Origin: a virus
Strand: one strand, 5' to 3'
Virus record (IMG/VR): IMGVR_UViG_3300006875_000154
Location: 1 to 24,719 of that record
Length of the DNA stretch: 24,719 nt
This document shows, in pieces, positions 5,673 through 24,556 of this stretch. The stretch's first letter is position 1. Each line of letters opens with the position of its first letter. Both the position numbers and the translations under genes were made by a program. The notes under the pieces are model-generated. The model had not been told where the DNA came from. It saw only the letters and a list, made by a program, of their open reading frames with translations, and made no database searches.

Positions 5673-6662
5673 TTATTTCTTTACCATTGATTTTATTGTT
5701 TCTTTGACTAATGGTCTCAAAATACTAACTAATCTTTCTTGAAGTCTTTGTTTTTTAACTTTTTTCAAATATGATTCTTGTAATCTCTTTTGATTTACTT
5801 TGTTATATTCACGAAGTTTTTTCATAATAGATTCTGTTAGTGGTTTTTGACCACGACGCATTTGATAATATGATTCCATTTTATCCTTAACATCAGGACC
5901 GTATGGTGCCTTAAGATCGATAGCACCAGCTGCAATTGCCTTAGCAATAGTTGCAACTTCGGGAGCATTTATAACGGGCATATCTACACGATTTGGCGCC
6001 CATCCTGGAATTGCCTTTGGCATTTTTGCCGCATTAGCAACCATTTTTTTCTTTGCCTCTTCAACCGAACCACCCCATTTTTCAAAAGCTTCTTTACATT
6101 TTGCAGGATCTTTTTCTGCCCAATAACCTTTTTCTAAAACAGCATCAATAGCATCTTCGATTGGTTTACCACCAAATTGTGCAATATCACCTTTACCAGT
6201 ATTTCCACCACGACCTAAACCTTTTGTAACAACATTAAGTGCAGTTACAAGAGCACCACCTGGAAGGTCAATTTGTGTTGCATCAAGAGTTGCAGATGGG
6301 TCAACTAAGAATGTTGCTGCCCAACGGTGATGTCCGTCCATGATATAATTATCGTTTGATATAATCGCTTGTAAATCACCACCAGGTCCACTTGGCATAG
6401 GATTGATTTTCATTATTGCAGAAAAAGCAAATTCTACTGCTTTCTGTGGAACTACTTCTTTTTGAGACGGTTTTAATTTACCAGCAGCAACGGATACTTT
6501 TTTCGATGGAATTTGATCATCCGCAGTATCTCCATCAGCCTTTCCACCTTTGTATGCTGCTTTCGCCGCATCAGCTGGAACTTGACTTAGTGGCATAGCA
6601 TCTTTGGTTCCAAATACTTCATCATCTTCAAACAGTCTTCTCTTTTTGTTAGTCTGTTTCAT
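5673..6662 (-). CDS. ParB/sulfiredoxin-like domain protein of the head gene cluster
   Basis: 329 residues. The region LKPSQKEVVPQKAVEFA (63-79) followed by IMDGHHRWAA (107-116) is the signature of the ParB/sulfiredoxin-like fold found in several phage proteins; the DGHHRW segment corresponds to the nucleotide-binding GxxRR-type motif of ParB. Residues 1-60 are charged and low in order. The last 75 residues are strongly basic and helical, with repeated RLQE units and a candidate LTE|S cleavage site. An enzymatic role (CTPase, nuclease or kinase-like) cannot be decided from the motif. It is a single-gene unit between major capsid and the paralog pair, with its own promoter-like motif and terminator, which suggests a virion-related role. 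ATG 6662 is preceded by TGGGAAAA. Confidence 0.7.
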   Translation of the reverse strand: MKQTNKKRRLFEDDEVFGTKDAMPLSQVPADAAKAAYKGGKADGDTADDQIPSKKVSVAAGKLKPSQKEVVPQKAVEFAFSAIMKINPMPSGPGGDLQAIISNDNYIMDGHHRWAATFLVDPSATLDATQIDLPGGALVTALNVVTKGLGRGGNTGKGDIAQFGGKPIEDAIDAVLEKGYWAEKDPAKCKEAFEKWGGSVEEAKKKMVANAAKMPKAIPGWAPNRVDMPVINAPEVATIAKAIAAGAIDLKAPYGPDVKDKMESYYQMRRGQKPLTESIMKKLREYNKVNQKRLQESYLKKVKKQRLQERLVSILRPLVKETIKSMVKK

Positions 6663-6811: not shown

Positions 6812-8464
6812 CTAGATGTCACCTAAAGAATCGATTTGAATCAAACCGTAGAATTCAGGACGAACAATTTTCTTAGCATAGCGAGTCATCACGCCTTTTC
6901 TTGGTGTGAAGTTGGTTGGATCATATACCAATGGTGTCATTACAAGTGGAATGTAAGGAGCATAAACCGCACCTGTTTCCAAGAATTGTGAACCACGGAA
7001 ACCTACAAGAACTTGATTTTCAAGCATATATGGGTTCTTGTAAACTGTGATACGACCATTTAATTGACCAACTTTTTGTACACCCATTGCGAATTTCATA
7101 CCTTCACCATCAACTGCATAGCCAGGCATTGATTCAAGTATTGTAGCAACTTGTGGAGAACATACGAGGAAGTTTGCACCACCACGAAGTGTTTTCTGAT
7201 GAATTGTGTTTGATACTTTTTGAATCTTTGTGCCAAGTGTTTGGAACCAAGTTTGTTGGTTAAACGCAGAAGCAGCAGCTTGGTTTGTAGCATAGTCACC
7301 GAACAATCCAGTAGCACCATCATAAGTGCGACCGATACGAGCAGACCATCTTTCTGTTGTTTGTGCATTCTTAATCAACATATCAAGAATTTCCAAATCA
7401 ATTTCTTGTGAAATGTATTCAGACAACATAGATGTTAATTCTGCTTCAGCATCGATTGAGTGATATGCATTCAAATCTTGTGCGAATTCAGGTGTCCATA
7501 CTGCCTTCAACTTGCGTGTTTTAGCAACTATGGATTCTGAACGCAATTCTAGATTGATTTCTGGAATAGCTGTTGTGTCAGCTAATGCAGAACCTGCTGT
7601 GTCTTCAAAGTCACCACGAGAAGTTGCAGTAGGTTGTTTTTCGTAAGAAACAACTGCATTACCAGGAACTGCTGATGCAGAAACTACGAATGTAATTTGT
7701 GTGTTTGTTGAGTTTGCAGTTGTATATTGTGGGAAGTAACCCAAAATATTTGAACCAGAAATCTTGAAAGCACGAATTGCTTCTGTATCGTGTGTTGTCA
7801 TAGATGCAGAAGAAACTGTAACTGTAAAGATTTTACCACCTGCAAGAGATGCAGAGTAAGCATTTTGGAATTCTGTATCATACTGATATGTTGCTGGTGT
7901 ACTGTGAGAAACTGAACCAGTTGCACAGTTAGTAGAATCAACAGTAGTAGCAGTTACAGCCAATGTTGAAGTGTTTGCTTCATTGATTGAATAACCAAAA
8001 CGACCTGCACCATAAAGACCGCCTGAAGGATCAGCGTCTTTTGCATCTTTACCTGTCACACCGAATACAGAATCATTTTGTGAATCTTTACCTGCACCTG
8101 TTGTGAAACCAGGTTGTGCTGTACCATATTTGAAATCCAAGAAGAACACAAGACCAGAAGGCAAGTTCATTGGTTGAACAGAAACAAAATCTTTCGCAGC
8201 AATTTCAGAAAAAATACGGCGAACCAATGGAAGTGCAACGCCTGCCCATTCTTCTGAGCCAGCTGCTGTACCTGTACGGCTTGATTCATCAATAAGTTGT
8301 TTTGCTTGGTTTTCTAAAAGAACTGCAATAGAGTTCTTTTCATATTCATTATTCAAATTATCAAGAAGACCAGTTTTTGCCCATTTGTTGACAATTTGCT
8401 TGTTTTCTTTGATAAGTGCTTTGTGGGGATTCCCAGAAGCATTTAAGAGAGATTGTATACTCAT
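6812..8464 (-). CDS. 23: Major capsid protein, T4 gp23-like
   Basis: 550 residues (T4 gp23 has 521). Recognisable family blocks: EEWAGVALPLVRRIF and DFVSVQPMNLPSG (about 72-100), where T4 has the VGVQPMxxPTG segment; WTPEFAQDLNAYH and the following acidic helix; FLVCSPQVATILESMPGY; and a C-terminal YDPTNFTPRKGVMTRYAKK. The N-terminal 60 residues are a charged leader ending in LIDE60|SS, a good match to the gp21 site (I/L)xE|(A/G/S); T4 gp23 is cut after residue 65. The predicted mature shell protein is thus about 490 residues. SD AAGGAT precedes ATG 8464, and the gene follows the scaffold gene after 19 bases, so the two share a transcript. Confidence 0.95.
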   Translation of the reverse strand: MSIQSLLNASGNPHKALIKENKQIVNKWAKTGLLDNLNNEYEKNSIAVLLENQAKQLIDESSRTGTAAGSEEWAGVALPLVRRIFSEIAAKDFVSVQPMNLPSGLVFFLDFKYGTAQPGFTTGAGKDSQNDSVFGVTGKDAKDADPSGGLYGAGRFGYSINEANTSTLAVTATTVDSTNCATGSVSHSTPATYQYDTEFQNAYSASLAGGKIFTVTVSSASMTTHDTEAIRAFKISGSNILGYFPQYTTANSTNTQITFVVSASAVPGNAVVSYEKQPTATSRGDFEDTAGSALADTTAIPEINLELRSESIVAKTRKLKAVWTPEFAQDLNAYHSIDAEAELTSMLSEYISQEIDLEILDMLIKNAQTTERWSARIGRTYDGATGLFGDYATNQAAASAFNQQTWFQTLGTKIQKVSNTIHQKTLRGGANFLVCSPQVATILESMPGYAVDGEGMKFAMGVQKVGQLNGRITVYKNPYMLENQVLVGFRGSQFLETGAVYAPYIPLVMTPLVYDPTNFTPRKGVMTRYAKKIVRPEFYGLIQIDSLGDI

Positions 8465-8483: not shown

Positions 8484-9548
8484 TTATTTTAAACCTGCTA
8501 ATTTGCGTAAACGATTTGCCATATCATTACCTTCATTCAAGATTGGTTTTGATGGGCGTGTACTTGCTGTTGGTTTAGAAGCAAAAGATTCTTTAAGTTG
8601 TTTAACTTTTGTTGTTCTAAACGATTCGCTAAGTGTAGCAAAAACTAATTTGACTTCACGAAGACTTGATGCACGATCAAAGTTTTCGATAACAGTCATT
8701 TTTTGACGCTCTGACAATGAGTGTTTTCTAAAAAGTTTGTTAGAGAACAATAATTTAGAATTAAGAAGATTTACCTCGTTTATTTTTGAACGCAAGAATT
8801 TGATAACAGCATAAGCTTCACGAAGTTTTGCTTCTGCAACTTCTGCTTCTTCATCTTCACCTTCTTCAACAGGTGCTTCCTCTTCGTCTTCCTCGCGGAG
8901 AGCACGGAGAACTTCTTTAATATCTACTTCTTCTTCATCTTCACCTTCTTCAACGGGTGCTTCTTCAGCTTCACCTTCCTCTTCCTCGCGGAGAGCACGG
9001 AGAATTTCTTTGATTTCAGCAACCTCTTCACTGTCTTCTTCATCTTCTACTAATTGAGTAAGTTTTTCACTCTTCATTTCAGTAGAGTCATCTGATGCAA
9101 CTGCTGATGGTTTCTTGTTGTCACCACTGCCGATTTCAGATGAATCAATGTCTTCTTCTAATTGACGAATTATCTCCATCAAATCTTCATCCATTGGTTC
9201 TTCTTCATCTTCACCTTCTTCAACTGGTGCTTCTTCATCTTCACCTTCTTCAACAGGTGCTTCCTCTTCTTCACCTTCTTCCATTGCAGGTTCTTCATCT
9301 TCACCTTCTTCCATCGCAGGTTCTTCTTCTTCACCCTCAAAGAATCCGTATTCTTCAACTGGTGCTTCTTCTTCACCCTCACCCTCTTCAACTGGCTCTT
9401 CTGCTTCTGCTTCTTCTGCCAATTTTTTGGAGAGCATCGATTGAAGACGAGGTGTAAATGCCTCCTCCAATGCGAGCTTTGCGTTTGCAAGTGCTACTTC
9501 CTTAACGGCTTTAGCATCTGCAATTGCTTCTTTCAGTAAGTCATTCAT
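8484..9548 (-). CDS. 22: Prohead core scaffold, T4 gp22-like, with acidic repeats
   Basis: 354 residues. The helical N-terminus (LKEAIADAKAVKEVALANAK, then FTPRLQSMLSKKL) leads into an extremely acidic centre of repeated EEAPVEEGEDEE units (about 45-255), two copies of IKE(I/V)LRALREE, and a basic helical C-terminus. A candidate gp21 site LNE339|G would release the last 15 residues (GNDMANRLRKLAGLK). T4 gp22 is a similarly acidic helical scaffold that gp21 chops up and removes before DNA packaging. The position between the prohead protease and major capsid genes supports the call. SD GGAG precedes ATG 9548, in a 110-base leader behind a promoter-like motif. The acidic segment is about 70 residues longer than expected for T4 gp22. 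Confidence 0.88.
   Translation of the reverse strand: MNDLLKEAIADAKAVKEVALANAKLALEEAFTPRLQSMLSKKLAEEAEAEEPVEEGEGEEEAPVEEYGFFEGEEEEPAMEEGEDEEPAMEEGEEEEAPVEEGEDEEAPVEEGEDEEEPMDEDLMEIIRQLEEDIDSSEIGSGDNKKPSAVASDDSTEMKSEKLTQLVEDEEDSEEVAEIKEILRALREEEEGEAEEAPVEEGEDEEEVDIKEVLRALREEDEEEAPVEEGEDEEAEVAEAKLREAYAVIKFLRSKINEVNLLNSKLLFSNKLFRKHSLSERQKMTVIENFDRASSLREVKLVFATLSESFRTTKVKQLKESFASKPTASTRPSKPILNEGNDMANRLRKLAGLK
8847..9350. repeat. Coding minisatellite in the scaffold gene
   Basis: Four 30-bp units in tandem (9201-9320, unit starting TTCTTCATCTTCACCTTCTT on the plus strand) with a degenerate fifth, plus isolated copies near 8847 and 8931. A second repeat, offset by 93 bp (starts 8891 and 8984), encodes IKE(I/V)LRALREE twice. 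All units are multiples of three and stay in frame, so copy-number changes alter only the length of the acidic scaffold arm. Confidence 0.85.
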
Positions 9549-9673: not shown

Positions 9674-9808
9674 CTAACTACTTTTTTCGGTATTTTTTTG
9701 TGAATTTTTTTCGGGAGGACCATAAGAGAATATAGATTTTACATCGTTCTGAGTGTATGTATATCTTTTATTCCTATCCTTTGTGTCTATTTTCTTTTCA
9801 TCCGCCAT
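9674..9808 (-). CDS. Small 44-residue protein between ART fusion and scaffold
   Basis: Short frame not found by length cut-offs. ATG 9808 lies 9 bases after an ideal GGAG ribosome site and overlaps the last 11 bases of the ADP-ribosyltransferase gene in another frame, a normal coupling geometry. The product is hydrophilic (MADEKKIDTKDRNKRYTYTQ, then NDVKSIFSYGPPEKN, then a Lys/Asn/Ser-rich tail) with no hydrophobic segment. Its location just ahead of gp22 recalls the small core genes 67 and 68 of T4, but I see no sequence similarity and assign no function. Confidence rests on start context and uninterrupted frame. Confidence 0.6.
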   Translation of the reverse strand: MADEKKIDTKDRNKRYTYTQNDVKSIFSYGPPEKNSQKNTEKSS

Positions 9809-10922
9809 GATTTTGCTCCACTAATATTTTGTAAATATTTCTTTTATCATTAAATCCTTGAATAGTATATCTACAATTTCTCGGAAGAGTTACCTCCGTT
9901 TCATGACAATATTCATTTACTTTACATGGTAAGGTTAATACGGAAGTTCCAGCGGGAATTAAAAACTCAAAAAGTGGTAATCTTTTTTTATCACCACCCT
10001 CACATATCAAAGGATTCAATGTTGTTGTTACAAACACTTCATCAACCCATTGACCGGCATCAACGAATGCCTGTAAAACATCTTCGTTTTCAACAGATTT
10101 GTAGGTTATTATGTTATAATCAAGTCTCTGCATTTGTTCACTAAATGCATAATCTAAACTACGAATTGTAAATGCATTCATTGCACTATTAAAAATCTTT
10201 TCTCTCTTATCGCCTTCTTTTGGTTTACCCATTTTAAGTTGTTGGCGTATTTCTTTCGGTGACATGAGTGATTCAGCAAATCGTATGATATTATTTATAT
10301 GACCGGTATTCAAATAATAATGTTGGAGTGCAGTTACAGTTTCTTTATCCAATTCTTTTTTACTCAATATACTATGTTTAGAGACAGCAATTGTTTCTAC
10401 TCGTTTGTATAATGCCTTTAAATCTTTGTCTTTACCTATAACTGAATCATACATATCTAATATTTCTTCGTAATCAAAATTAAGTAATTTATCTTGTGAT
10501 TCTGGATAAATTCCAGTTGTCTTTTTACTCAATTTTTCTACCTCTATTGGTTTAAGAAAACCAACCGTTTTTAATCCAGTTTTTTCCTCATTCGGTTCTT
10601 TTGGTTTTTCTTCTTCCTTTTTTTCCTCTTCTGGTTTTTTATCAGACTTTTCTTCCTCTGGTTTTTCCTCAGATTTCTCTTCTGGTTTTTCCTCAGATTT
10701 CTCTTCCTCAGGCTTCTCCTCCGGCTCTTCTTCCTTTTTTTCTTCTTCTGGTTTTTCATCAGGAGTTTCAGTTGGGGTTTCGGTGGGAGTTTCAGTAGGG
10801 GTTTCAGTAGGAGTTTCAGCCGGTGCATCATCCTCCTCATATAAAGACGATAACCTTTCTTTATTTTCAATAACTTTCCGCAATTCTTCACGGATTAGTC
10901 TTTTAATACTAAGAAAGGTCAT
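9798..10922 (-). CDS. Putative packaged ADP-ribosyltransferase with low-complexity N-terminal arm
   Basis: 374 residues in three parts. Residues 1-30 form a helix (IKRLIREELRKVIENK) related to the N-termini of other head-cluster proteins. Residues 33-113 are low complexity: five PTET units, then KPEEEK/SEEKPEE repeats. Residues 150-370 resemble C2/C3-toxin-type mono-ADP-ribosyltransferases: ALQHYYLNTGHINNIIRF (198-215), ITYKSV (272-277), FVTTTLN (297-303, the STS position), and NEYCHETEVTLPRN (336-349) with the ExE pair E341/E343. The first catalytic Arg of the R-S-E class appears to be Lys275. In T4 the head-borne Alt modifies host RNA polymerase on injection; a similar role is inferred. SD GGAG precedes ATG 10922. 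Target and activity are unknown. Confidence 0.72.
   Translation of the reverse strand: MTFLSIKRLIREELRKVIENKERLSSLYEEDDAPAETPTETPTETPTETPTETPDEKPEEEKKEEEPEEKPEEEKSEEKPEEKSEEKPEEEKSDKKPEEEKKEEEKPKEPNEEKTGLKTVGFLKPIEVEKLSKKTTGIYPESQDKLLNFDYEEILDMYDSVIGKDKDLKALYKRVETIAVSKHSILSKKELDKETVTALQHYYLNTGHINNIIRFAESLMSPKEIRQQLKMGKPKEGDKREKIFNSAMNAFTIRSLDYAFSEQMQRLDYNIITYKSVENEDVLQAFVDAGQWVDEVFVTTTLNPLICEGGDKKRLPLFEFLIPAGTSVLTLPCKVNEYCHETEVTLPRNCRYTIQGFNDKRNIYKILVEQNHGG
10758..10820. repeat. 12-bp tandem repeats encoding PTET
   Basis: About five 12-bp units (plus strand close to GGAGTTTCAGTA, varying at G/A positions) encode repeated TPTE in the flexible arm of the ADP-ribosyltransferase fusion. They are followed by irregular Glu/Lys/Pro-rich repeats down to about 10585. 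All are in frame. Confidence 0.8.
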
Positions 10923-11182: not shown

Positions 11183-11788
11183 TTATTTATTATTATCTTT
11201 TATTTCATAAAATCTACCGAGATGTTTTCCTATATTCTCGTAAATAGATTCTAATGTTCTTTGTAGTTTAACAATTTTTGCTGATGTTTTTTCAAACATA
11301 ATGACAGATTCTTTTAATCTTTTTGTATTACGAGAATGTGACATACCTTCAAACCAATCACCAGATTCTTCTACCATATTTTTACTTGCAAATTCAACAA
11401 GTCTTTTAATTTCCTTAACTATTTCCGGAAGTTGTTTAGATCTATGAATAACAGAACGGTGTTCATTATATCGAGATATAGCTTCAATATACTGTTGTTT
11501 TTGTTCTGATGTTAATCTTTTTGTACTAAACCGCTCACCCATTACTTCCTCAACTGCATCAGCAACAAGTTTGTTTATTTCTTCCTTTGTCATTGTTGTT
11601 TTCGTTTCACCAACTTTTTTAGGAAGACCTTTGTGAGATGTTGATGCATACTTTTCTAATTCCTTAATAGACATAGAATTAGCCAAATCTTTAACAGATT
11701 TACTCACTTTTGATGCAGGAACTTTACCTCTTTTATATGCAAGAGCCAATCCCATTATTTTTTGTTGTTGTTGTGAGAGTGCAGGCAT
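11183..11788 (-). CDS. DUF3008-like protein with helical C-terminus
   Basis: 201 residues. The first 60 residues (ALSQQQQKIMGLALAYKRGK, then a MSIKELEKYASTSHKGLPKK segment) match the small DUF3008 family: a polar Gln/Lys start, an AxxxKRGK turn, and a KELExxAST-xxxGLP ending. Residues 65-201 are a charged, mostly helical extension with a possible coiled coil (HRSKQLPEIVKEIKRLVEFA and the last 40 residues). ATG 11788 overlaps the gp21 stop by one base (TAATG) behind a GGAG site, so the two are translationally coupled. DUF3008-like proteins recur near head genes of marine myoviruses; a prohead-core role is inferred from that and from position, with no biochemical motif visible. Confidence 0.65.
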   Translation of the reverse strand: MPALSQQQQKIMGLALAYKRGKVPASKVSKSVKDLANSMSIKELEKYASTSHKGLPKKVGETKTTMTKEEINKLVADAVEEVMGERFSTKRLTSEQKQQYIEAISRYNEHRSVIHRSKQLPEIVKEIKRLVEFASKNMVEESGDWFEGMSHSRNTKRLKESVIMFEKTSAKIVKLQRTLESIYENIGKHLGRFYEIKDNNK

Positions 11789-12447
11789 TATTTATCTCCA
11801 AATAAACATTCACAAACATTACCTATTTCACAAATAATGTTTGTTATATTATTATTTATTCTTTGTAATTTAGGATCTATTTTTGCAATAGTTTCTAAAC
11901 TAACACCTTCGCGTATCAAACCTTCACTCATTCCATCTGGATACATAAATGCACCATGAGTTGACGGATTTGAAACGAAATCCCAACATAATAATTCAAA
12001 ATCCTCTTGAACTTCAACAGTTCCTTCACTTATTTCTTCCACCGAACCCAATCCCCTTGATGATATTCCAAGGCGAATACCGGCACCAAGAAGTTGTTTT
12101 AGAATGTTTCCAGATGGCGTTGGTAGAATTTCAACCTTACCAATAACATCATTACCGTCCCAATCAACACCAAGAACATTATGTGAAACATTACGAAGAT
12201 TTATTACAGATGAATCCGGATGGTCTAATTCACCAAGAGCACGATTTTCTTTTATATTCGTTGCAGCATATTTTTTTACTTCACGCATTAAAATCTTTTT
12301 TGGGTAGACTCTACCGTTTTGATTTTTTGCTTCCGCTCTCTGTAATACTCCCGAGACTATAACTTTACCGTCATTCTTTCTTTCAGATTCGGCAATCATT
12401 TTTGGACTTACACTAAAAAGTATAGTATCTACGAGTAGTTGTTTCAT
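11788..12447 (-). CDS. 21: Prohead core protease, T4 gp21-like
   Basis: 219 residues (T4 gp21 has about 212). Catalytic blocks of the herpesvirus-assemblin-like peptidase fold are visible: GVLQRAEAKNQNGRVYPK (33-50), GELDHP with the catalytic His76 (72-77), and GISSRGLGS with the nucleophile Ser129 or Ser130 (127-135), then WDFVSNPS. A likely self-processing site IRE180|G lies near the C-terminus. I start at ATG 12447 (MKQLLVDT), behind a TTAGG site; a longer frame begins with GTG at 12456. The enzyme matures capsid, scaffold and internal proteins at (I/L)xE sites, several of which occur in neighbouring products. It is coupled upstream and downstream by near-overlapping stops and starts. Confidence 0.93.
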   Translation of the reverse strand: MKQLLVDTILFSVSPKMIAESERKNDGKVIVSGVLQRAEAKNQNGRVYPKKILMREVKKYAATNIKENRALGELDHPDSSVINLRNVSHNVLGVDWDGNDVIGKVEILPTPSGNILKQLLGAGIRLGISSRGLGSVEEISEGTVEVQEDFELLCWDFVSNPSTHGAFMYPDGMSEGLIREGVSLETIAKIDPKLQRINNNITNIICEIGNVCECLFGDK

Positions 12448-12448
12448 A

Positions 12449-12952
12449 TTATGCACCTAATTCGTGTATTTTTTTACTAATTCTATTTATTTTTTCTGCA
12501 ATTTTAACCAAACGATTTCTCGATTCTCTCCAAAGAGTTCTTTGGTCAACTGCCATTTCAGTTTTTAACCTTGACGCGTGCTCTACCGCTCTTTCAACTT
12601 CATACATGATTCTATTTATATTTTTTATAGAGTCATTTATTTTTCTATTTGTTGTTCTTGTTTCATCTTTACGAAATTCTTTATATGATGCCTCATTTAA
12701 AGCACCCATTGCCTGTTTATAAACAGACTCAAAGTTTTTACCCTTTCCCTTCGGAACAACAGTATATCCTTGATTCTTTGCAACTTCTTCACTGTGTTCT
12801 TCAAAAGCATCTTCACTTGGTGCAAATGCCTTTGGTGTTTGATACCCCGCAACCATACCAGTTACACTAGTTTCAGAAATACCCATTTCATCATTGAATT
12901 TTATAAATTCTTCGGATTCTTTTATTTTTTGTATGAAAGATTCTACATTCAT
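12449..12952 (-). CDS. Small head-cluster protein, probable gp21 substrate
   Basis: 167 residues. The N-terminal half contains TSVTGMVAGYQTPKAF (28-43), a motif I associate with short proteins next to head genes in marine phages. The C-terminal 75 residues are a charged helix (INRIMYEVERAVEHASRLK). A sharp candidate prohead-protease site LNE87|A separates the halves. The gene ends one base before the gp21 start, and its own ATG 12952 has a TTAGG ribosome site that overlaps the preceding gene. Its position between portal and protease corresponds to T4 genes 67/68, so a core or internal head role is plausible, but no sequence evidence of homology is visible. Confidence 0.6.
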   Translation of the reverse strand: MNVESFIQKIKESEEFIKFNDEMGISETSVTGMVAGYQTPKAFAPSEDAFEEHSEEVAKNQGYTVVPKGKGKNFESVYKQAMGALNEASYKEFRKDETRTTNRKINDSIKNINRIMYEVERAVEHASRLKTEMAVDQRTLWRESRNRLVKIAEKINRISKKIHELGA

Positions 12953-16073: not shown

Positions 16074-16094
16074 AAAATAGTTAAACACTATTTT
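16074..16094 (-). terminator. Weak hairpin at the terminase stop codon
   Basis: An 8-bp AT-rich stem AAAATAGT / ACTATTTT with a 5-base loop includes the terminase TAG stop codon. Only TTTTTGATAC follows on the minus strand. The stem has few G-C pairs, so at best it is a partial terminator; read-through into the portal gene is likely. Confidence 0.35.
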
Positions 16095-17680
16095 ATCAAC
16101 CATGTTAAGTCTTCATCTTGTCCATTTACTTTCATATTCCAGCCACTACTGTCATCACCAAATGAATAAGATGGTTTATGTATTGTTGACGACTTTCCTA
16201 AATAATCCAAACTCATTCTTGTTTTTAAAAGACCTTCTTGACGAAGTTTCAGAGCAGTATCTCTCACCCACAAACCTATTGCAAATGACATAACCAAATC
16301 ATCATTGTAACCTGTTTGTGCTTCTGCCTTTGAACCATTCCAAACAAACACATATAATTCTTCTACTAACCGTGAAGATTTTATAATAGGTGCTCTTTCA
16401 CGAAAATATGTTTCCAACTTTGAAATTAAAAGTGGTCTTGTTTTAGCACTTGTAGTGAAACCAGGAACCATTTGAGATTTATCTTTTAAGTCATAACCTT
16501 TTGGAATATGAACGGATGGATCAGTATAACCATCTTCTTTGTATGTATAATAAAGATTCGGATAACCCCTATCAATAATTTGTTGAATTACAGCCCATCC
16601 AATGTTAGCATTTTCAGGAACAAGTAATGCATCATTATATTCTGTTGCAACTGATACTAACATATTTCCATAAGTTTTTGTATCAAGTTTACCTTTATAT
16701 TCAGCAACTTGTTCCATGTTTTCAACATCAAGTACATGAAATGCTGAGTTATCGTTTCCGTCACCACGAGCAACATCTGCTACTACCATATATGTTTTTG
16801 AAGGATCAGGGTAGTCCCATATCCAAAGTGAATCTTCAATACCTCTTCTTTCTTTTGGTTCACATACATAAGTGTCTTCATACCACTTTACAAGTTCACC
16901 ATCAATAACAGCACGACCAGATGAAAGGAAGTTTCCATCACATTCTTGTTTAGCCATGTCAGGACCTAACAGTGCATCTTGTTCATCACGCCATGCTTGA
17001 TCTCGGTCTGGATGAACTTGCCATAATAATTCTATTGGATTGAAACCACTTTCACCTAACTTTGCCTTCACCCATTGTTTGTGATAAAAGTTACCAACAC
17101 CATTTGGAGTAGAGTTGATAATTGCAGTACCACCGGTTGCGAGTGTTTGTTGTGAAGATGCCCATATCTTATCTATGCCATCAATAAATGCAGCTTCATC
17201 TATAATAAGAAGTGAAAGTGCTTCAGAACGAGCGGAGTCAGCGGCAGCAGAAACGGCTTTAATTTGTGAACCGTTCTTAAATCGAAGTGAAAGTTTATTA
17301 TCTTCTTGAACGCCAGTCTTCAACCAACTAGGTAGATTGTCATACATAACACGAACTTTTGTTACCAAGTTTTTTGCAGTTTCTTGTTTCGTAGCAATAA
17401 CAAGAATATTTTTATCATTATTAAATAACATCATCCATAATGAGTATCCAGCAATTAAAGTTGAAATACCCAACTGACGAGATTTTAGGACTATGTTATA
17501 TCGATTATCATTAAATTCTTTTAGAACATCTTCTTGGAATGGATACAATTCAAAAAGTATTTTGCCTCTTTTTGGGTGTTGAATCTTTGCATACCTTTTC
17601 ATAAAATATACGGGATTTGCCGCACATTTGGCATATTCCTCTTTAATGATGTCTTTTAGATTTTTAGTAGATTGACTCAT
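16088..17680 (-). CDS. 17: Large terminase subunit, T4 gp17-like
   Basis: 530 residues from ATG 17680. I chose this start because it overlaps the preceding stop as ATGA; a longer frame opens at 17731 but its extra residues (MVFWWGRNSPRN) are an out-of-frame read of that gene. ATPase motor: SRQLGIS (68-74) as Walker A, LLIIDEAAF (157-165) as Walker B with the catalytic Glu, STPNG (190-194) as the coupling motif. Nuclease: VVADVARG with Asp302, VPEN with Glu356, and GYNDDLVMSFAIG with Asp460/461, matching the three acidic residues of T4 gp17. The enzyme pumps DNA into the prohead and cuts concatemers. No small terminase is recognisable in the window. Confidence 0.96.
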   Translation of the reverse strand: MSQSTKNLKDIIKEEYAKCAANPVYFMKRYAKIQHPKRGKILFELYPFQEDVLKEFNDNRYNIVLKSRQLGISTLIAGYSLWMMLFNNDKNILVIATKQETAKNLVTKVRVMYDNLPSWLKTGVQEDNKLSLRFKNGSQIKAVSAAADSARSEALSLLIIDEAAFIDGIDKIWASSQQTLATGGTAIINSTPNGVGNFYHKQWVKAKLGESGFNPIELLWQVHPDRDQAWRDEQDALLGPDMAKQECDGNFLSSGRAVIDGELVKWYEDTYVCEPKERRGIEDSLWIWDYPDPSKTYMVVADVARGDGNDNSAFHVLDVENMEQVAEYKGKLDTKTYGNMLVSVATEYNDALLVPENANIGWAVIQQIIDRGYPNLYYTYKEDGYTDPSVHIPKGYDLKDKSQMVPGFTTSAKTRPLLISKLETYFRERAPIIKSSRLVEELYVFVWNGSKAEAQTGYNDDLVMSFAIGLWVRDTALKLRQEGLLKTRMSLDYLGKSSTIHKPSYSFGDDSSGWNMKVNGQDEDLTWLIK

Positions 17681-18048
17681 TGTACTGCAAATATTATTCC
17701 TAGGACTGTTCCGACCCCACCAAAAAACCAAAGAAATTTATTGTCATACCAACGAGGTTGTAATTCTTCATTGATTTTTTCCAATTCTGCCTTCTGTTTT
17801 TGACAAGCATCAATTAATGCATTTCTATTACTGAGTTGTCTATTATAGAAATCAACACGAGAATTATACAAATCAATTACGGTATCTTGTACATTTACAA
17901 CTGTTTGTAGATATTCAACGGAATCTCTTAGGAGTTGAATTTTGTTTGCCAATTTAGTTACTTCGGATTTACTAAAACAAACAAGAGAATCTTTTTCAGA
18001 AGCAAATGTAGTGGATGCCATGAAAAGTAATGCGATAATATATTTCAT
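17677..18048 (-). CDS. Envelope coiled-coil protein with signal-like N-terminus and C-terminal TM
   Basis: 123 residues. The N-terminus MKYIIALLFMASTTFASEKD looks like a signal peptide or short anchor. Residues 25-97 form a long heptad-like helix (QLLRDSVEYLQTVVNVQDTV onwards), and a hydrophobic segment FLWFFGGVGTVLGIIFAV (about 104-121) ends the protein. Similar small coiled-coil proteins with a terminal membrane helix are common in phages of Bacteroidetes, usually unnamed. With the next gene upstream it may form a spanin-like pair that bridges the envelope during lysis, a guess from topology only. No lipobox Cys is evident. It overlaps the terminase start by four bases and follows its neighbour by three. 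Confidence 0.55.
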   Translation of the reverse strand: MKYIIALLFMASTTFASEKDSLVCFSKSEVTKLANKIQLLRDSVEYLQTVVNVQDTVIDLYNSRVDFYNRQLSNRNALIDACQKQKAELEKINEELQPRWYDNKFLWFFGGVGTVLGIIFAVQ

Positions 18049-18051
18049 AAC

Positions 18052-18384
18052 TTACTCTTTAATAAAATCTTTAACAAACTTTGTAGCTGAATCTGGATTT
18101 GTAATTTTTCTGTCACGATATATGTAGAATCTTTCTTTTACAATACGGACATTTTCCGATTTCACTTTGATAATGGAATCCAATTCATCTGCTCTTTTTT
18201 TCAAGAAGGTATAGTCATATTGATATTTTTGCACCAATGCCTCTAAACTATCTTTTGTTTTTGTCCATTGTTTAATTTCTGCTTTTGAACTTTGAGTATC
18301 CTTAAACATATAGAACACAAACAGTAAACCACCCAAAGTTGCAATGCCCTTTAGGATCCATTCTATTCTCTTATCAATCTCCAT
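18052..18384 (-). CDS. Membrane-anchored coiled-coil protein, possible inner-membrane spanin
   Basis: 110 residues. One N-terminal membrane helix (WILKGIATLGGLLFVFYMF, about 9-27) is followed by a 75-residue charged helix (KTKDSLEALVQKYQYDYTFL, KKRADELDSIIKVKSENVRI). This is the topology of Rz-type inner-membrane spanins, and the downstream neighbour also has envelope features. No sequence match to named spanins is evident, so the role is inferred from shape and from a holin-like gene 1.5 kb upstream. SD AAAGG precedes ATG 18384. Confidence 0.5.
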   Translation of the reverse strand: MEIDKRIEWILKGIATLGGLLFVFYMFKDTQSSKAEIKQWTKTKDSLEALVQKYQYDYTFLKKRADELDSIIKVKSENVRIVKERFYIYRDRKITNPDSATKFVKDFIKE

Positions 18385-18386
18385 AA

Positions 18387-18731
18387 CTAACCTTTTGTGA
18401 ATGTTGAAACCATTTTTGCCTTACCACGACCAGTTGCACCTTTTTTTCTTTTGCGTGTTACGGCACTTTTCTTTTGTTTTGATGACATACTTGCAGCTTT
18501 ACTTGCAGGTACACATTTTGGGTAAGCTCTCTTTCCACCTTTTCGTGACTTACTTCCAGCGGAAGAACCACAGGCAGGATGACCACCACTTTTATTTTTA
18601 CGAGAAATATCAACCCAACGGTCTTTAAACCAACGAGTCAATCCCCCACTGGGTTTTTTACCTTCAATTAAATATGTTTTTACATATTCACGAATAATCT
18701 TTCTAACCATATTTTCTTGTATTATATTCAT
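18387..18731 (-). CDS. Basic Cys-containing protein, DUF5872-like, with cleavable leader
   Basis: 114 residues from ATG 18731; ATG 18710 (MVRKIIREYV) is also possible, and an upstream ATG at 18737 overlaps the promoter-like motif and is unlikely. The leader MVRKIIREYVKTYLIE ends in LIE|G, an ideal gp21 site. The mature part (GLTRWFKDRWVDISRK, HPACGSSAG, GGKRAYPKCVPASKA, then a Lys/Arg-rich tail) matches what I recall as DUF5872, found in phages and giant viruses. It is very basic, so DNA binding or condensation inside the capsid is plausible. No SD is seen ahead of 18731; the motif ends four bases before that ATG, which suggests a leaderless mRNA. Confidence 0.65.
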   Translation of the reverse strand: MNIIQENMVRKIIREYVKTYLIEGKKPSGGLTRWFKDRWVDISRKNKSGGHPACGSSAGSKSRKGGKRAYPKCVPASKAASMSSKQKKSAVTRKRKKGATGRGKAKMVSTFTKG

Positions 18732-18735
18732 ACAC

Positions 18736-18744
18736 ATAAATATA
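18736..18744 (-). promoter_or_regulatory. Late-promoter-like motif before the DUF5872-like gene
   Basis: Coding-strand TATATTTAT followed by GTGT and then ATG 18731. It heads the block that ends with terminase. The very short spacing argues for a start site at or near the ATG. Confidence 0.5.
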
Positions 18745-18750
18745 GTAATT

Positions 18751-19290
18751 TTAAATTATACTCACCCAAGGAATAGGAACAGGAATAGGTTTTCCTGTTG
18801 CATCTGTTCCCATAACTGTTCCTTGTATAGTAGTTTGATGAGTAACCAATGCCGAACAAAGTACATCCAAAAATCTTTCAGTATATCCTTGTGAAAATGC
18901 TAACCAAATGTGAGTTGCAAGTGGTTCGGGAGCACCAGGAAAAGTAACCTTAGTACCTATTGTTGCAAGAGATAATGCAGGTTTTGGTACTGTTAAATCA
19001 AACTTAGCACCTGCCCAATAACCTATAAAACCAACAGCCATTAATTTTGAAGTAGTTTGTAATATATCACGGGAGGTTACACCTTGATTACTATTAACAG
19101 CGTTTGCTATCGCATCCTGCAAGAATGCCTTTTGACCTTGTATTAATTTTGCACCATATAATGTTTGTGCAAAACCCAATGTTGAATATGAATATGCAGT
19201 TGCTAATAGTTCACCAAATTGATTACCGTCTCTTGTTGTATTTGATTCAAGAGCCGGTCTCATTATTGCCTTAAAAATATCTTTATTCAT
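18751..19290 (-). CDS. Unknown hydrophobic protein between DUF-family genes
   Basis: 179 residues with a helical first part (FGELLATAYSYSTLGFAQTL, LMAVGFIGYWAGAKFDL) and a Pro-rich second part ending PIPVPIPWVSII. The moderately hydrophobic segments are rich in Ala/Gly/Tyr and do not look like clean membrane helices, so it may be a virion structural protein. No motif is recognised. ATG 19290 directly follows the preceding stop; no good SD is visible, so it may rely on translational coupling. It ends 19 bases before the next start, across the promoter-like motif. Confidence 0.5.
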   Translation of the reverse strand: MNKDIFKAIMRPALESNTTRDGNQFGELLATAYSYSTLGFAQTLYGAKLIQGQKAFLQDAIANAVNSNQGVTSRDILQTTSKLMAVGFIGYWAGAKFDLTVPKPALSLATIGTKVTFPGAPEPLATHIWLAFSQGYTERFLDVLCSALVTHQTTIQGTVMGTDATGKPIPVPIPWVSII

Positions 19291-20771: not shown

Positions 20772-23051
20772 TTAACTTTTATCTATGATTTGATAAACTG
20801 TTTTTATAAATCTTTTTTTAACTGGATCATTTGGGTTATTACCCATTTCTTTGAAAAACGCATCGTAATATTTTTTTAGTGAATCGGATACACCGAGTGG
20901 TATTTTATTGTATTGTAACATTTTCAATAATGATTTATCAGTTTCCATTGGAAAATGAGCTCTCATTTGTTCTACAAATTCTTCTGCATGAGCACCAATT
21001 TCCATAGTATCAGATAAATATGTTTTCCAATAATTTGAATCATCTGCTGATAAACGATTATATGATGCACGGTGAATTTTTTGAGAATTAGAAAATTCTT
21101 TTACTCTTTGTACATAATGTATCAACTCGTGTGCAATAGTAGGTATAAACACTTTCTTAACAAATTCTTGTATTATACTATCAACCGAAGTTTTTATTGT
21201 ACCACGCTTTGCAAGTTGTATCTTTACAAAGAATGGAATAAATTCAAATGTGAAATATATTCTAAATTCTGCTTTATCTAAAGATTTAATACCAGAACCC
21301 AATGCAGCACCGCCGGCAAACTCATCACTATTGGTAGAAAATTGTGTCAACTCAGAATTAAATTTTGTATAATTTATTTTATTGTTTAATTCATATTCTG
21401 AATCAAAATCTGGATCAAGTAAATGTTCTATTTCCAAAGCGATTCCTGCATTTTCTTCATCTTTATTATTTTTAAAACAATACTGTAAAACTTTTGTTAT
21501 TTCAGAAAATTTCGCATCAAGTCCCGCTTTAATTTCAATTTCAACAGATTGTAACTTAATACCATTAAAAAATTTATTACCATATTTTTTAACATAGTCT
21601 TCGTTTTTAATCCAACGGTTTACGATTGCAGTAATATATTCTTGATTTTCAAATCCAGATTTTACTCTAGGAAGCAAAATACGCTTAAATCCAAGAAAAC
21701 TTGAATCTAATCGTATTAAATCAGCGATTTCCTTAAAAAGTTCTACGGCAACTGGTTCTATTTCTTTCAATAAACCAGTTGGTAATGTTGCTACTTCATT
21801 TATTTGTTCTATTTCTTCTGTTATAACATTTTCAAATACTTTATCATATTTAATATCTTCAATATTTATAGAATCATCATTAAATAATATGTAATCATTC
21901 CAATTATTACTTATCCTACTTTTTAAACCATCAACACCATTATTAAATAAAAATAAAGAAGCGTATTTATCACCACCTAAAATTCTTGATAAAGTTTTAT
22001 AAAAAAGATAACCACTATATGCAAATTCAATAACTTCATCAGATTTTTTATTCAACCTATCTAACGCTTCTACAATTTTATTAACTATATTTTCTTCAAC
22101 TGGACTCTTCGTATCTATCAAAACATAATCTTTTTTATCTTTGAAAAGTTTTACTTTGTATAAGTAATCACCGTACTGATTATCTGGTATATTATCGGAA
22201 AAATAAAGCCCATATCCATATCTTTGTTTATTACTATCAACACTAACATTTGATATATCAAACTTATGAAAATTTTTTGAACTTCTGTGATAAGCTATTA
22301 TTTCTTCTGTTATAACATTTTCAAATACTTTATCCCAAAACTTTCTTGTTATCATGTGAAGTGGTCTTAATTCACCTTCTTTTTTCTTTTTCACTTCAAT
22401 CATTTCACCTCGTTTTTCATTAAACTTGGCAATAACCATATTGAATATCTTAACATCAAACCAACCAAATATAGAAATAAATCTACTCTTTAACTCTGAT
22501 AGTTTTGCTTCTCTATCACTCAATGCCTTGTGAATAGTTTCTCGTGTCATTTCACCAAAACTGGGAATATCATAAGAGATATGATTTGATATTATGTAAT
22601 AAACATAAGGATTTTGAATATCTTTGTATGGTAGGTTAGAAGAATTATTATACTTAGTCAACCGTTTAAACTCTTTAATTTTTGATAGGTCATCATTGCC
22701 GAGAGCATAAATTATAATTGTATCTTGACCGTCAAACTTTTCTATAATATCTGTTGCATGATATGGTGTATTTGATTTCATAACATTCGTTACACCATGT
22801 CTTTTTATTATTTGTACCTTTTCATCGTATGATAATGGAAGTGTTTGAATATCCATTTTATCATCAGTTACAACATAAACATTTTCTTTACCGAATTTAC
22901 GGCATAATCTATTATATTCTTCTCGTTGATGAATACCCATTGGATTGAATTTACCAGGAAATAAAACAACAATGTCCTTATCCACCAATTCATTTTCATT
23001 GAATATGGAAAGGTTCATTTCACGGATAAGTTTTAATATAGGGTTATTCAC
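20772..23051 (-). CDS. Three-module protein: nucleotidyltransferase-like, ART-like, HExxH metallopeptidase
   Basis: 759 residues. Module 1 (about 25-235) resembles NMNAT/cytidylyltransferase enzymes: VVLFPGKFNPMGIHQREEYN (28-47) stands where GxFxPxHxGH is expected, but the HxGH pair is degraded; SFGEMTRETIHKAL (164-177) matches the ISxTxIR region. Module 2 (about 252-400) resembles polyvalent-protein ADP-ribosyltransferases: AYHRSS (253-258, His255), GYGLYFSD (279-286, Tyr283) and a closing NDYILFNDD (385-393). Module 3 (about 430-759) carries HELIH (641-645) with EIGAHAEE (684-691) as a likely third-ligand region, a zinc metallopeptidase pattern. Identical DKVFENVITEEI linkers flank module 2. 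The N-terminus ILKLIRE resembles other head-cluster proteins. Start is GTG 23051 behind an ideal GGAGG. Activities are predicted only. Confidence 0.75.
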   Translation of the reverse strand: MNNPILKLIREMNLSIFNENELVDKDIVVLFPGKFNPMGIHQREEYNRLCRKFGKENVYVVTDDKMDIQTLPLSYDEKVQIIKRHGVTNVMKSNTPYHATDIIEKFDGQDTIIIYALGNDDLSKIKEFKRLTKYNNSSNLPYKDIQNPYVYYIISNHISYDIPSFGEMTRETIHKALSDREAKLSELKSRFISIFGWFDVKIFNMVIAKFNEKRGEMIEVKKKKEGELRPLHMITRKFWDKVFENVITEEIIAYHRSSKNFHKFDISNVSVDSNKQRYGYGLYFSDNIPDNQYGDYLYKVKLFKDKKDYVLIDTKSPVEENIVNKIVEALDRLNKKSDEVIEFAYSGYLFYKTLSRILGGDKYASLFLFNNGVDGLKSRISNNWNDYILFNDDSINIEDIKYDKVFENVITEEIEQINEVATLPTGLLKEIEPVAVELFKEIADLIRLDSSFLGFKRILLPRVKSGFENQEYITAIVNRWIKNEDYVKKYGNKFFNGIKLQSVEIEIKAGLDAKFSEITKVLQYCFKNNKDEENAGIALEIEHLLDPDFDSEYELNNKINYTKFNSELTQFSTNSDEFAGGAALGSGIKSLDKAEFRIYFTFEFIPFFVKIQLAKRGTIKTSVDSIIQEFVKKVFIPTIAHELIHYVQRVKEFSNSQKIHRASYNRLSADDSNYWKTYLSDTMEIGAHAEEFVEQMRAHFPMETDKSLLKMLQYNKIPLGVSDSLKKYYDAFFKEMGNNPNDPVKKRFIKTVYQIIDKS
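21810..21845. repeat. 36-bp direct repeat, copy 1 (after ART module)
   Basis: Perfect 36-bp copy of 22299-22334, in frame (offset 489 bp). On the minus strand it encodes DKVFENVITEEI (residues 403-414), between the ART-like and metallopeptidase modules. Confidence 0.95.
22299..22334. repeat. 36-bp direct repeat, copy 2 (before ART module)
   Basis: Perfect 36-bp copy of 21810-21845. It encodes residues 240-251, between the nucleotidyltransferase-like and ART-like modules. The two copies bracket exactly the ART-like module. Confidence 0.95.
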
Positions 23052-23548: not shown

Positions 23549-24556
23549 TTACAAAATTATATTTTTAGTTAAACCTATAAGTTCTTTTCTAATATTTTCA
23601 AATGGTTTATCCCAATTACCATATTTTTCTTGTCTGAATAGTCTTGCGGAATTATACCACCTTGAAGTATCGCCAGGTACTACCCATGTATAATACGGCA
23701 TTATAGGTGTAACTATCCAAGTTGGAACTCCCATAGCAGCGGAGAGGTGTGCAATTGAAGTACAAGAAGTAATTATAACATCACAGCCCGCAATAATAGA
23801 AGCAGTATCGTCCCATGTTTTCATTTGCTCTCGCATATCAGAAAAAGGGAGTCCATCAACACAATCATCATCTCTTTGAAGTGAATAAAAAGTTGTATTT
23901 GGAACATCATGTAATCCAATCATTAATTCGGATGGAAATATTCTGTGTTGTTGGTGTTCAAATTCTTTTGAACCACTCCAACGAATACCAACTTTTAGTG
24001 TACCCTTCTTAGAAAACAAATTTCTTTTTTCTTTTGGAAACATAAATGGTTTACCATCTAAATCATTATATTCCATACCTAAAACATAAGCAGCAGACAT
24101 TGCTGGCACCCAATAATCATAATGTGTATGTGGTATTGCTTCAGTATTAATACAAATAAAACCGTGACGAGAGAATATTTCTTTTAATTCTTTATCACAT
24201 GATACTAAAACTCTTGCACCCATTTCTTCAAATTTTTTAGCAAAACGAAAATTAAGAATTTGATCACCATAACCACCTTCACATCTAAATAAAAGTGTTT
24301 TATTTTTTAATGGTTCATCTTTCCATATTTTTCCAGGTATCGGTGGTAATCCAAAAACATTTATATATCTACCATAATTGAAATATTCAAACGCTTTCAT
24401 CATATTTCCATGGCGCATTTCGTGCCAACCTAAGTTAAAAAGAACTCTATAATCATTTTGTGGTTGTTTTCTGAGTATATTTTCACTTTCACCTGGATTT
24501 CCGTTGATTGCGTATTCTAATGCAACATCAAGTGGATGTTTCATATCATTTATCAT
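23549..24556 (-). CDS. TPR-glycosyltransferase (GT9-like, GT-B fold)
   Basis: 335 residues. The first 65 form TPR-like helices (NLGWHEMRHGNMMKAFEYFN, 41-60). A GT-B glycosyltransferase follows: TLLFRCEGGYGDQIL (87-101, the GxGD nucleotide-binding turn), KVGIRWSGSKEFEHQQHR (188-205), FYSLQRDDD, and SCTSIAHLSAAMGVPTW (264-280), the donor-binding motif of heptosyltransferase-like GT9 enzymes. Closely similar proteins are frequent in pelagic myoviruses. Possible substrates are virion tail proteins, phage DNA or host surface glycans; none can be chosen here. ATG 24556 is preceded by AAAGG at a long spacing, and by two tandem promoter-like motifs. Confidence 0.85.
   Translation of the reverse strand: MINDMKHPLDVALEYAINGNPGESENILRKQPQNDYRVLFNLGWHEMRHGNMMKAFEYFNYGRYINVFGLPPIPGKIWKDEPLKNKTLLFRCEGGYGDQILNFRFAKKFEEMGARVLVSCDKELKEIFSRHGFICINTEAIPHTHYDYWVPAMSAAYVLGMEYNDLDGKPFMFPKEKRNLFSKKGTLKVGIRWSGSKEFEHQQHRIFPSELMIGLHDVPNTTFYSLQRDDDCVDGLPFSDMREQMKTWDDTASIIAGCDVIITSCTSIAHLSAAMGVPTWIVTPIMPYYTWVVPGDTSRWYNSARLFRQEKYGNWDKPFENIRKELIGLTKNIIL

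What the first reader, a model, noticed from the sequence alone, without database searches (positions are those of the whole stretch)
21810..22334. Perfect 36-bp in-frame direct repeats bracket the ART module exactly
Identical 36-bp sequences 489 bp apart encode DKVFENVITEEI on both sides of the ART-like module. Perfect identity at the DNA level, including wobble bases, implies a recent duplication or insertion. The linker looks like an exchange point: recombination between the copies would delete the ART module cleanly and leave a two-module protein, so populations may carry both forms.
Basis: seen in the sequence. Interest (0 to 1): 0.75.

Follow-up and report, generated by a model that had tools for sequence, protein, structure and literature searches.

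The report
Swappable effector cassettes in phage polyprotein
A virus of bacteria carries a three-part protein whose middle part (an ADP-ribosyltransferase) sits between two copies of the same 12-amino-acid linker, and related viruses have gained, lost or swapped parts at that linker, which also looks like a cutting site for the enzyme that matures the virus head.

Summary
The repeat is real: two identical 36-bp copies (21810-21845, 22299-22334), 489 bp apart, in frame, each encoding DKVFENVITEEI, in a 759-aa gene of a T4-like phage. IMG/VR relatives lack exactly the ART module (L011, L012, L013) and keep one linker; another ends right after the second linker (L009); 65 of 80 carry the first module alone; nine other contigs carry all three. 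Module identities are incongruent (L004/L006: N 98%, ART 79%, C 93%; window/L010: N 75%, ART 98%), with most breaks at or just beside a linker. Perfect identity is not recency: most three-module relatives differ by 2-3 bases between linkers, and the window's left copy carries a variant otherwise seen only in right copies, which implies homogenisation. The middle module is an ART (AlphaFold pLDDT 85; best solved match an ejection protein in a cyanophage virion). The linker fits the T4 prohead-protease motif (L/I-X-E, cut after E). Best reading: a packaged, injected effector polyprotein built from exchangeable cassettes joined at processing sites. Exchange is shown; packaging and cleavage are inferred.

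The parts
20772..23051 (-). 759-aa three-module gene (N-module / ART / C-module); 596-597 aa two-module, 413 aa N+ART and 247-248 aa N-only forms in relatives
22335..23051 (-). N-module, residues 1-239: nucleotidylyltransferase-like (cytidylyltransferase / NMN adenylyltransferase type) with a degenerate catalytic HxGH motif (GIHQ)
   Evidence: homologous Mel-JY01 protein hits PF01467 at 21.1 bits (cut-off 21) and NMN adenylyltransferase models; window protein itself gives no hit; weak Foldseek rows for NadD
23019..23051 (-). N-terminal 11 residues VNNPILKLIRE, candidate capsid-targeting propeptide ending in I-x-E
   Evidence: L-[IL]-x-E conserved at about residue 11 in nearly all N-modules and in 40%-identical Mel-JY01
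22299..22334 (-). left 36-bp repeat, residues 240-251 DKVFENVITE|EI; predicted prohead-protease site after E249 (between 22305 and 22304)
21846..22298 (-). ART module, residues 252-402, ADP-ribosyltransferase of the ART-PolyVal type
   Evidence: hhalign 98.5% vs ART-PolyVal-type group; AlphaFold2 pLDDT 85; VIA Z 9.9 to cyanophage A4 pre-ejectosome
21810..21845 (-). right 36-bp repeat, residues 403-414 DKVFENVITE|EI; predicted site after E412 (between 21816 and 21815)
   Evidence: last residues of the ART model disordered
20775..21809 (-). C-module, residues 415-759, HELIH metallopeptidase-like (HELIH at residues 641-645, 21117-21131), begins EQINEVATLP
   Evidence: HELIH and EIGAHA invariant in divergent relatives; Pfam SprT-like only E 0.14, below cut-off
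11788..12456 (-). prohead (head maturation) protease, proposed to cut the linkers
   Evidence: PHROG 207 E 1e-53
6812..8464 (-). gp23-type major capsid protein, supplies the likely cleavage rule QLIDE|SSRTG (residue 60); QLISE|ANRTG in Mel-JY01
   Evidence: PF07068 E 4e-79; motif comparison

Best explanation
The gene is a cassette polyprotein in the late (structural) region of a T4-like phage. Modules begin at a capsid-targeting-like decapeptide (hydrophobic..hydrophobic-[LI]-x-E): residue 11 at the N-terminus, and the two copies of the linker DKVFENVITE|E. I propose that the chain is drawn into the prohead like T4 Alt and the T4 internal proteins, that the phage's own prohead protease cuts after the E of each linker, and that the released enzymes (nucleotidylyltransferase-like, ART, metallopeptidase-like) are injected with the DNA to act on the host. 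Because the processing site must be nearly the same at every junction, its DNA is repeated at every junction, and phage homologous recombination uses that shared tract and the conserved end of the N-module to delete, gain or swap cassettes in frame. Shown: module gain, loss and swap, with most breakpoints at or beside the linkers; linker homogenisation; ART fold; site-like sequence at module boundaries. Inferred: packaging, cleavage, injection, catalytic activity and targets.
For: Architectures N (65 of 80 N-module loci), N+C, N+ART, N+ART+C; N allele 99.2% identical with N alone (L031) and N+C (L030), another 96.5-97.4% identical with N+ART+C, N+ART and N+C. Incongruent module identities and switch points at or near linkers. 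A standalone ART gene in another phage (L124) has a 28-residue leader ending QFTE|EIIAYHR and stops at IKYDPY, so its body matches the cassette from E to IKYD. T4 gp21 cuts after L/I-X-E (PMC9026906). The wider pattern [hydrophobic]..[hydrophobic][LI].E occurs at 0.22% of residues in other window proteins (1.7 expected here) but four times in this protein: residue 11, both linkers, and one inside the C-module. CTS-like N-termini are enriched in the window plus 60 kb of a 177-kb relative (21 of 90 vs 8.6% in interior stretches), and two adjacent unrelated genes there start with near-identical leaders MIKLKDLLKE / MKMIKLKDILKE. Prohead protease present. Closest solved fold to the ART is a domain of a virion ejection protein.
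Against: No proteomic or biochemical data. L/I-X-E is short and common, and the wider pattern was written after seeing the linker. The N-C junction of L097 (ESIVGDKNINEV) lacks the ITE site, though a conserved INE|V follows. A fourth pattern match (IIQE, residue 629) lies inside the C-module. The N-module's catalytic motif is degenerate. Two of the three modules are assigned only weakly.
Confidence: 0.55

Rival explanations
1. The linker is only a permissive inter-domain joint. Modules are exchanged there by homologous recombination, but the protein works as one uncut multidomain effector (a polyvalent protein), and the I-T-E motif is incidental.
For: Polyvalent proteins such as N4 vRNAP and ArdC/TraC1 are packaged or transferred unprocessed (PMC5512222); the linker is a short helix or disordered in models; one fused form (L097) lacks the site.
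Against: VITE|E is intact in 24 of 26 linker copies read (SAITEE in the left linker of L009 and SVLTEE in L030, the latter still L-T-E), the site coincides with the leader end of a standalone ART, and the phage has a T4-type prohead protease.
Confidence: 0.27
2. The linker is cut by the protein's own HELIH metallopeptidase module, as Iyer and colleagues propose for zincin-containing polyvalent proteins.
For: C-module has HELIH and an invariant EIGAHA; autoprocessing is the published proposal for such domains; in L009, which has lost the C-module, the left linker has drifted to SAITEE.
Against: The linkers are still present in L009 without the peptidase; a relative without this peptidase module, Mel-JY01, has an I-x-E (NNIIAE|GG) at its junction; the C-module is not confirmed as a peptidase by any profile above cut-off.
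Confidence: 0.1
3. The ART is a mobile cassette moved by a dedicated recombinase, the 36-bp repeats being its recombination sites, and the protein sequence is secondary.
For: Precise presence/absence of 489 bp with one or two repeat copies.
Against: Exchange is also seen outside the repeats (the last 17-75 nt of the N-module) and between alleles of every module; C-module loss in L009 shares a repeat on one side only; ordinary phage recombination suffices. No recombinase was searched for.
Confidence: 0.04
4. Chance or assembly artefact.
For: The window is a metagenomic virus record.
Against: Chance about 7e-12; the arrangement recurs in nine other contigs.
Confidence: 0.01

Closest known systems
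T4 internal head proteins (IPI-III) and Alt with capsid targeting sequences
   Same: Phage-head genes with a T4-type prohead protease; short N-terminal leader ending L/I-X-E; Alt is an ADP-ribosyltransferase packaged and cut by gp21 (PMC9026906); IP genes vary between phages and are recognised by a shared N-terminal signal (PMC12373910).
   Different: T4 keeps one effector per gene with the signal at its N-terminus; here the signal-like decapeptide is repeated inside one gene between effectors. Packaging is not shown.
Polyvalent proteins of phages and conjugative elements (Iyer 2017)
   Same: Several effector domains in one phage polypeptide, including ARTs and metallopeptidases, with mosaic architectures (PMC5512222).
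   Different: Processing is proposed there by a built-in zincin; repeated, DNA-identical junctions at cassette borders were not among the passages read.
Microcystis phage Mel-JY01 WWT39297.1 (cytidylyltransferase like protein)
   Same: Same first module (40.8% over the match), same place in the late operon upstream of terminase, second module joined near an I-x-E motif.
   Different: Second module is RNA-ligase-like by motif reading only; no ART, no repeated linker.
Cyanophage A4 pre-ejectosome protein (PDB 9k3a chain B, residues 1421-1611)
   Same: Best solved fold for the ART module, Z 9.9, rmsd 3.9, 145 residues, and a virion ejection protein by its title.
   Different: 17% identity; one domain of a very large ejection protein, not a cassette.

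Membership tests
Polyvalent proteins | Two or more effector domains in one phage or plasmid polypeptide | tested here: met
   N-module, ART and HELIH module in one 759-aa ORF; ART fold by profile and model, the other two modules by weak homology or motif
Polyvalent proteins | Zincin-type metallopeptidase domain | tested here: inconclusive
   HELIH and EIGAHA invariant, Pfam SprT-like E 0.14 and 0.18, below cut-off
Polyvalent proteins | Delivered into the host with the DNA | not testable with these tools
   needs virion proteomics or an injection assay
T4-type internal head proteins with capsid targeting sequence | Short N-terminal leader ending L/I-X-E | tested here: met
   LIRE at residue 11, conserved in N-modules and Mel-JY01; sequence only
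T4-type internal head proteins with capsid targeting sequence | Genome encodes a gp21-type prohead protease | tested here: met
   11788-12456, PHROG 207 E 1e-53
T4-type internal head proteins with capsid targeting sequence | Present in the virion and cleaved there | not testable with these tools
   no proteomics
ADP-ribosyltransferase, ART-PolyVal (PF18760) | ART fold and H...YGYGLYF motif | tested here: met
   AlphaFold2 pLDDT 85, Z 9.9 with other ART folds behind it, profile-profile 98.5% E 3e-15, motif aligned
ADP-ribosyltransferase, ART-PolyVal (PF18760) | Passes the Pfam gathering score | tested here: not met
   window protein gives no PF18760 row; relative L128 29.5 bits vs cut-off 31.2. 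So I call it an ART of this type by fold and profile, not a Pfam-level member
Cytidylyltransferase-like (PF01467) | HxGH catalytic motif | tested here: not met
   GIHQ in the window, GIHH in Mel-JY01; Mel-JY01 21.1 bits vs cut-off 21
Site-specific cassette system (integron-like) | Dedicated recombinase | not tested
   no search for recombinase genes was made; general recombination explains the data

The most novel reading that the evidence does not exclude
A phage effector-delivery platform in which one 12-codon element is at once the head-protease processing site between packaged enzymes and the DNA homology tract by which related phages swap, gain and drop those enzymes, so that the content of the injected arsenal is rearranged in frame within a single gene.
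Probability: 0.4. Interest if true: 0.8.

Novelty: new variant of a known kind. Interest (0 to 1): 0.6.

Why it matters
Phages inject enzymes that disarm the host, and it is unclear how that arsenal changes so fast. If the linker is a processing site, the phage has an in-frame plug-in slot: an enzyme with the right ends is packaged, cut free and injected. The prediction is sharp (two cleavage positions, E249|E250 and E412|E413) and readily testable, and the decapeptide pattern offers a way to find packaged effectors in uncultured T4-like phages.

Tried and rejected
Other modules between the same linkers: a degenerate linker scan and a looser core scan gave the same family plus, apart from one repeat in a baseplate-region protein, apparently unrelated proteins. 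Standalone C-module: none in two scans. ART relatives in bacterial genomes: no confirmed hit. Whole-protein AlphaFold2 model too weak to use for fold claims (pLDDT 55; Foldseek no row under E 0.001). Sequence search of the PDB with the ART profile found nothing. PADLOC and NCBIfam gave no informative hit for the window protein. The 78% copy at 23576-23611 in the neighbouring gene is not retained in L018 (WEDIFEEIRNELVD) and is taken as chance similarity. The T4 IPIII leader, recalled from memory as similar to the linker, could not be verified in the paper library and is not used as evidence. Repoila 1994 (T-even IP polymorphism) is not held. Read mapping for mixed populations was not possible.

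Full report
What is there. The window is a fragment of a T4-like phage: gp23-type capsid protein (6812-8464), T4-type terminase (16088-17731) and a head maturation protease (11788-12456) are clear. The gene in question, 20772-23051 on the minus strand, encodes 759 residues. The 36-bp repeat is exact, at the coordinates given, 489 bp apart, in frame and on the coding strand. Chance is excluded (about 7e-12 expected; longest repeat in simulations 18 bp).

The three modules. The middle module is an ADP-ribosyltransferase: profile-profile comparison with an ART-PolyVal-type group gives 98.5% and E 3e-15, the module models well on its own (pLDDT 85, pTM 0.81) and its best solved match is residues 1421-1611 of a cyanophage A4 pre-ejectosome protein (Foldseek E 1.7e-4; Z 9.9 over 145 residues), with PARP and diphtheria-type ART folds behind it. 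The window protein does not pass Pfam's own cut-off. The last residues of that model, the second linker, are disordered. The first module resembles nucleotidylyltransferases only weakly and lacks the HxGH motif. The third has HELIH and an invariant EIGAHA, but no profile hit above cut-off.

Relatives. A scan of IMG/VR with the whole protein returned 11 loci, a linker pattern 13, the N-module 80. The architectures are: N alone, typically 247-248 aa and ending KVYNEIIK, in 65 of those 80; N+C with a single linker (L011, L012, L013, L030) or a different junction (L097-L099, L102); N+ART ending KVFENVITEE and a stop (L009); N+ART+C (window, L003-L008, L010, L014, L018). Direct pairs with near-identical N-modules differ by one cassette: L030/L031 99.2% (N+C vs N), L010/L011 97.6% (with vs without ART), window/L009/L012 96.5-97.4% (three architectures).

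Exchange, not recency. Module identities are incongruent: L004/L006 N 98%, ART 79%, C 93.5%; window/L010 N 75%, ART 98%, C 99% over 168 nt; L007/L006 N 70%, ART 99.8%. Most switch points fall inside or within tens of nucleotides of the linkers, or in the conserved last 17-75 nt of the N-module; identity also varies within the C-module. The two linkers of one genome differ by 0 nt in the window and L003 and by 2-3 elsewhere. The window's left linker carries AAT (Asn) where the other left or single linkers carry a Ser codon (Pro in L013); AAT occurs elsewhere only in right linkers. The identity is therefore best read as homogenisation of an older duplication. Direction: N+C with divergent C-modules and different junctions (L097, L102) suggests that N+C predates the ART insertion; this is inference.

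Where the ART came from. In L124, another phage, a standalone ART gene 75% identical to the cassette has a 28-residue leader ending QFTE|EIIAYHR and ends IKYDPY. The cassette matches it from E-I-I-A-Y to I-K-Y-D. The cassette borders thus coincide with the leader end and the natural C-terminus of a free-standing enzyme.

What the linker is. The T4 prohead protease gp21 cuts after E in L/I-X-E, internal proteins carry 10-19-residue leaders that target them to the head and are removed, and Alt, an ADP-ribosyltransferase, is packaged, cut and ejected (PMC9026906). The linker reads DKVFENVITE|E. The capsid protein here has QLIDE|S, conserved as QLISE|A in Mel-JY01. A wider pattern with hydrophobic residues at -7 and -4, [LI] at -3 and E at -1 occurs at 0.22% of positions in other window proteins; in this protein it occurs four times, three of them at module starts and one (IIQE, residue 629) inside the C-module. 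The pattern was framed after seeing the linker, so this is supporting and not independent evidence. Leaders of this kind are enriched at protein N-termini in the window and 60 kb of a relative (21 of 90 vs 8.6% inside proteins), with two adjacent unrelated genes starting MIKLKDLLKE and MKMIKLKDILKE. The third module's first residues, INE|VATLP, are conserved in every N+C or N+ART+C form read and also fit.

How it most likely works. The chain is packaged in the prohead, cut by the prohead protease at each linker, and its enzymes are injected. Because each junction must present the same site, the DNA is repeated, and recombination at that tract and the adjacent conserved end of the N-module reshuffles cassettes in frame. 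Shown here: gain, loss and swap at the linkers, homogenisation, the ART fold, and the site-like sequence at the borders. Not shown: packaging, cleavage, injection, catalysis, targets. The main rivals are an uncut multidomain effector and self-processing by the HELIH module (proposed for polyvalent proteins, PMC5512222).

Novelty. Packaged ARTs, head proteases and mosaic polyvalent proteins are known. A repeated internal processing-site-like linker that doubles as the exchange tract within one gene was not found in the papers searched, but those searches cover only an open-access library. I file it as a new variant of a known kind.

Noticed in passing
9798-10922: A second candidate ART (EVFVTTTLNP stretch) with a Glu/Pro/Lys-rich repeat region and an N-terminal LIRE leader; a similar 388-aa protein lies at the matching place in Mel-JY01 (WWT39312.1). 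Family not confirmed by the scans.
   Followed up: partly
L258:3479-5359 (-), G003:C1:119467-119481: The 21-bp linker core GAATCTGTTATAACAGAAGAA recurs in frame (ESVITEE) in a 626-aa baseplate-region protein of the same 177-kb phage; no clear ortholog was found in other records searched.
   Followed up: partly
L220:17186-18130 and 18123-18767 (-): Two adjacent unrelated genes, one an ART-like protein, share near-identical N-terminal decapeptides (MIKLKDLLKE / MKMIKLKDILKE), as expected of a capsid-targeting leader.
   Followed up: partly
23576-23611: A 78% copy of the 36-bp repeat in the neighbouring glycosyltransferase-like gene (DKPFENIRKELI); not conserved in L018.
   Followed up: partly
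5673-6662: A ParB-like protein (DGHHRWAA) in the head operon; LR756508 has a ParB-like domain fused to a cytidylyltransferase and an RNA-ligase-like domain in one 915-aa protein (L027).
   Followed up: no
8484-9548: Scaffold-position protein with long Glu-rich simple-sequence repeats and a LAE|E motif.
   Followed up: no
L124:3577-5895: A run of small proteins made of VWNQV-type repeats beside the standalone ART gene.
   Followed up: no
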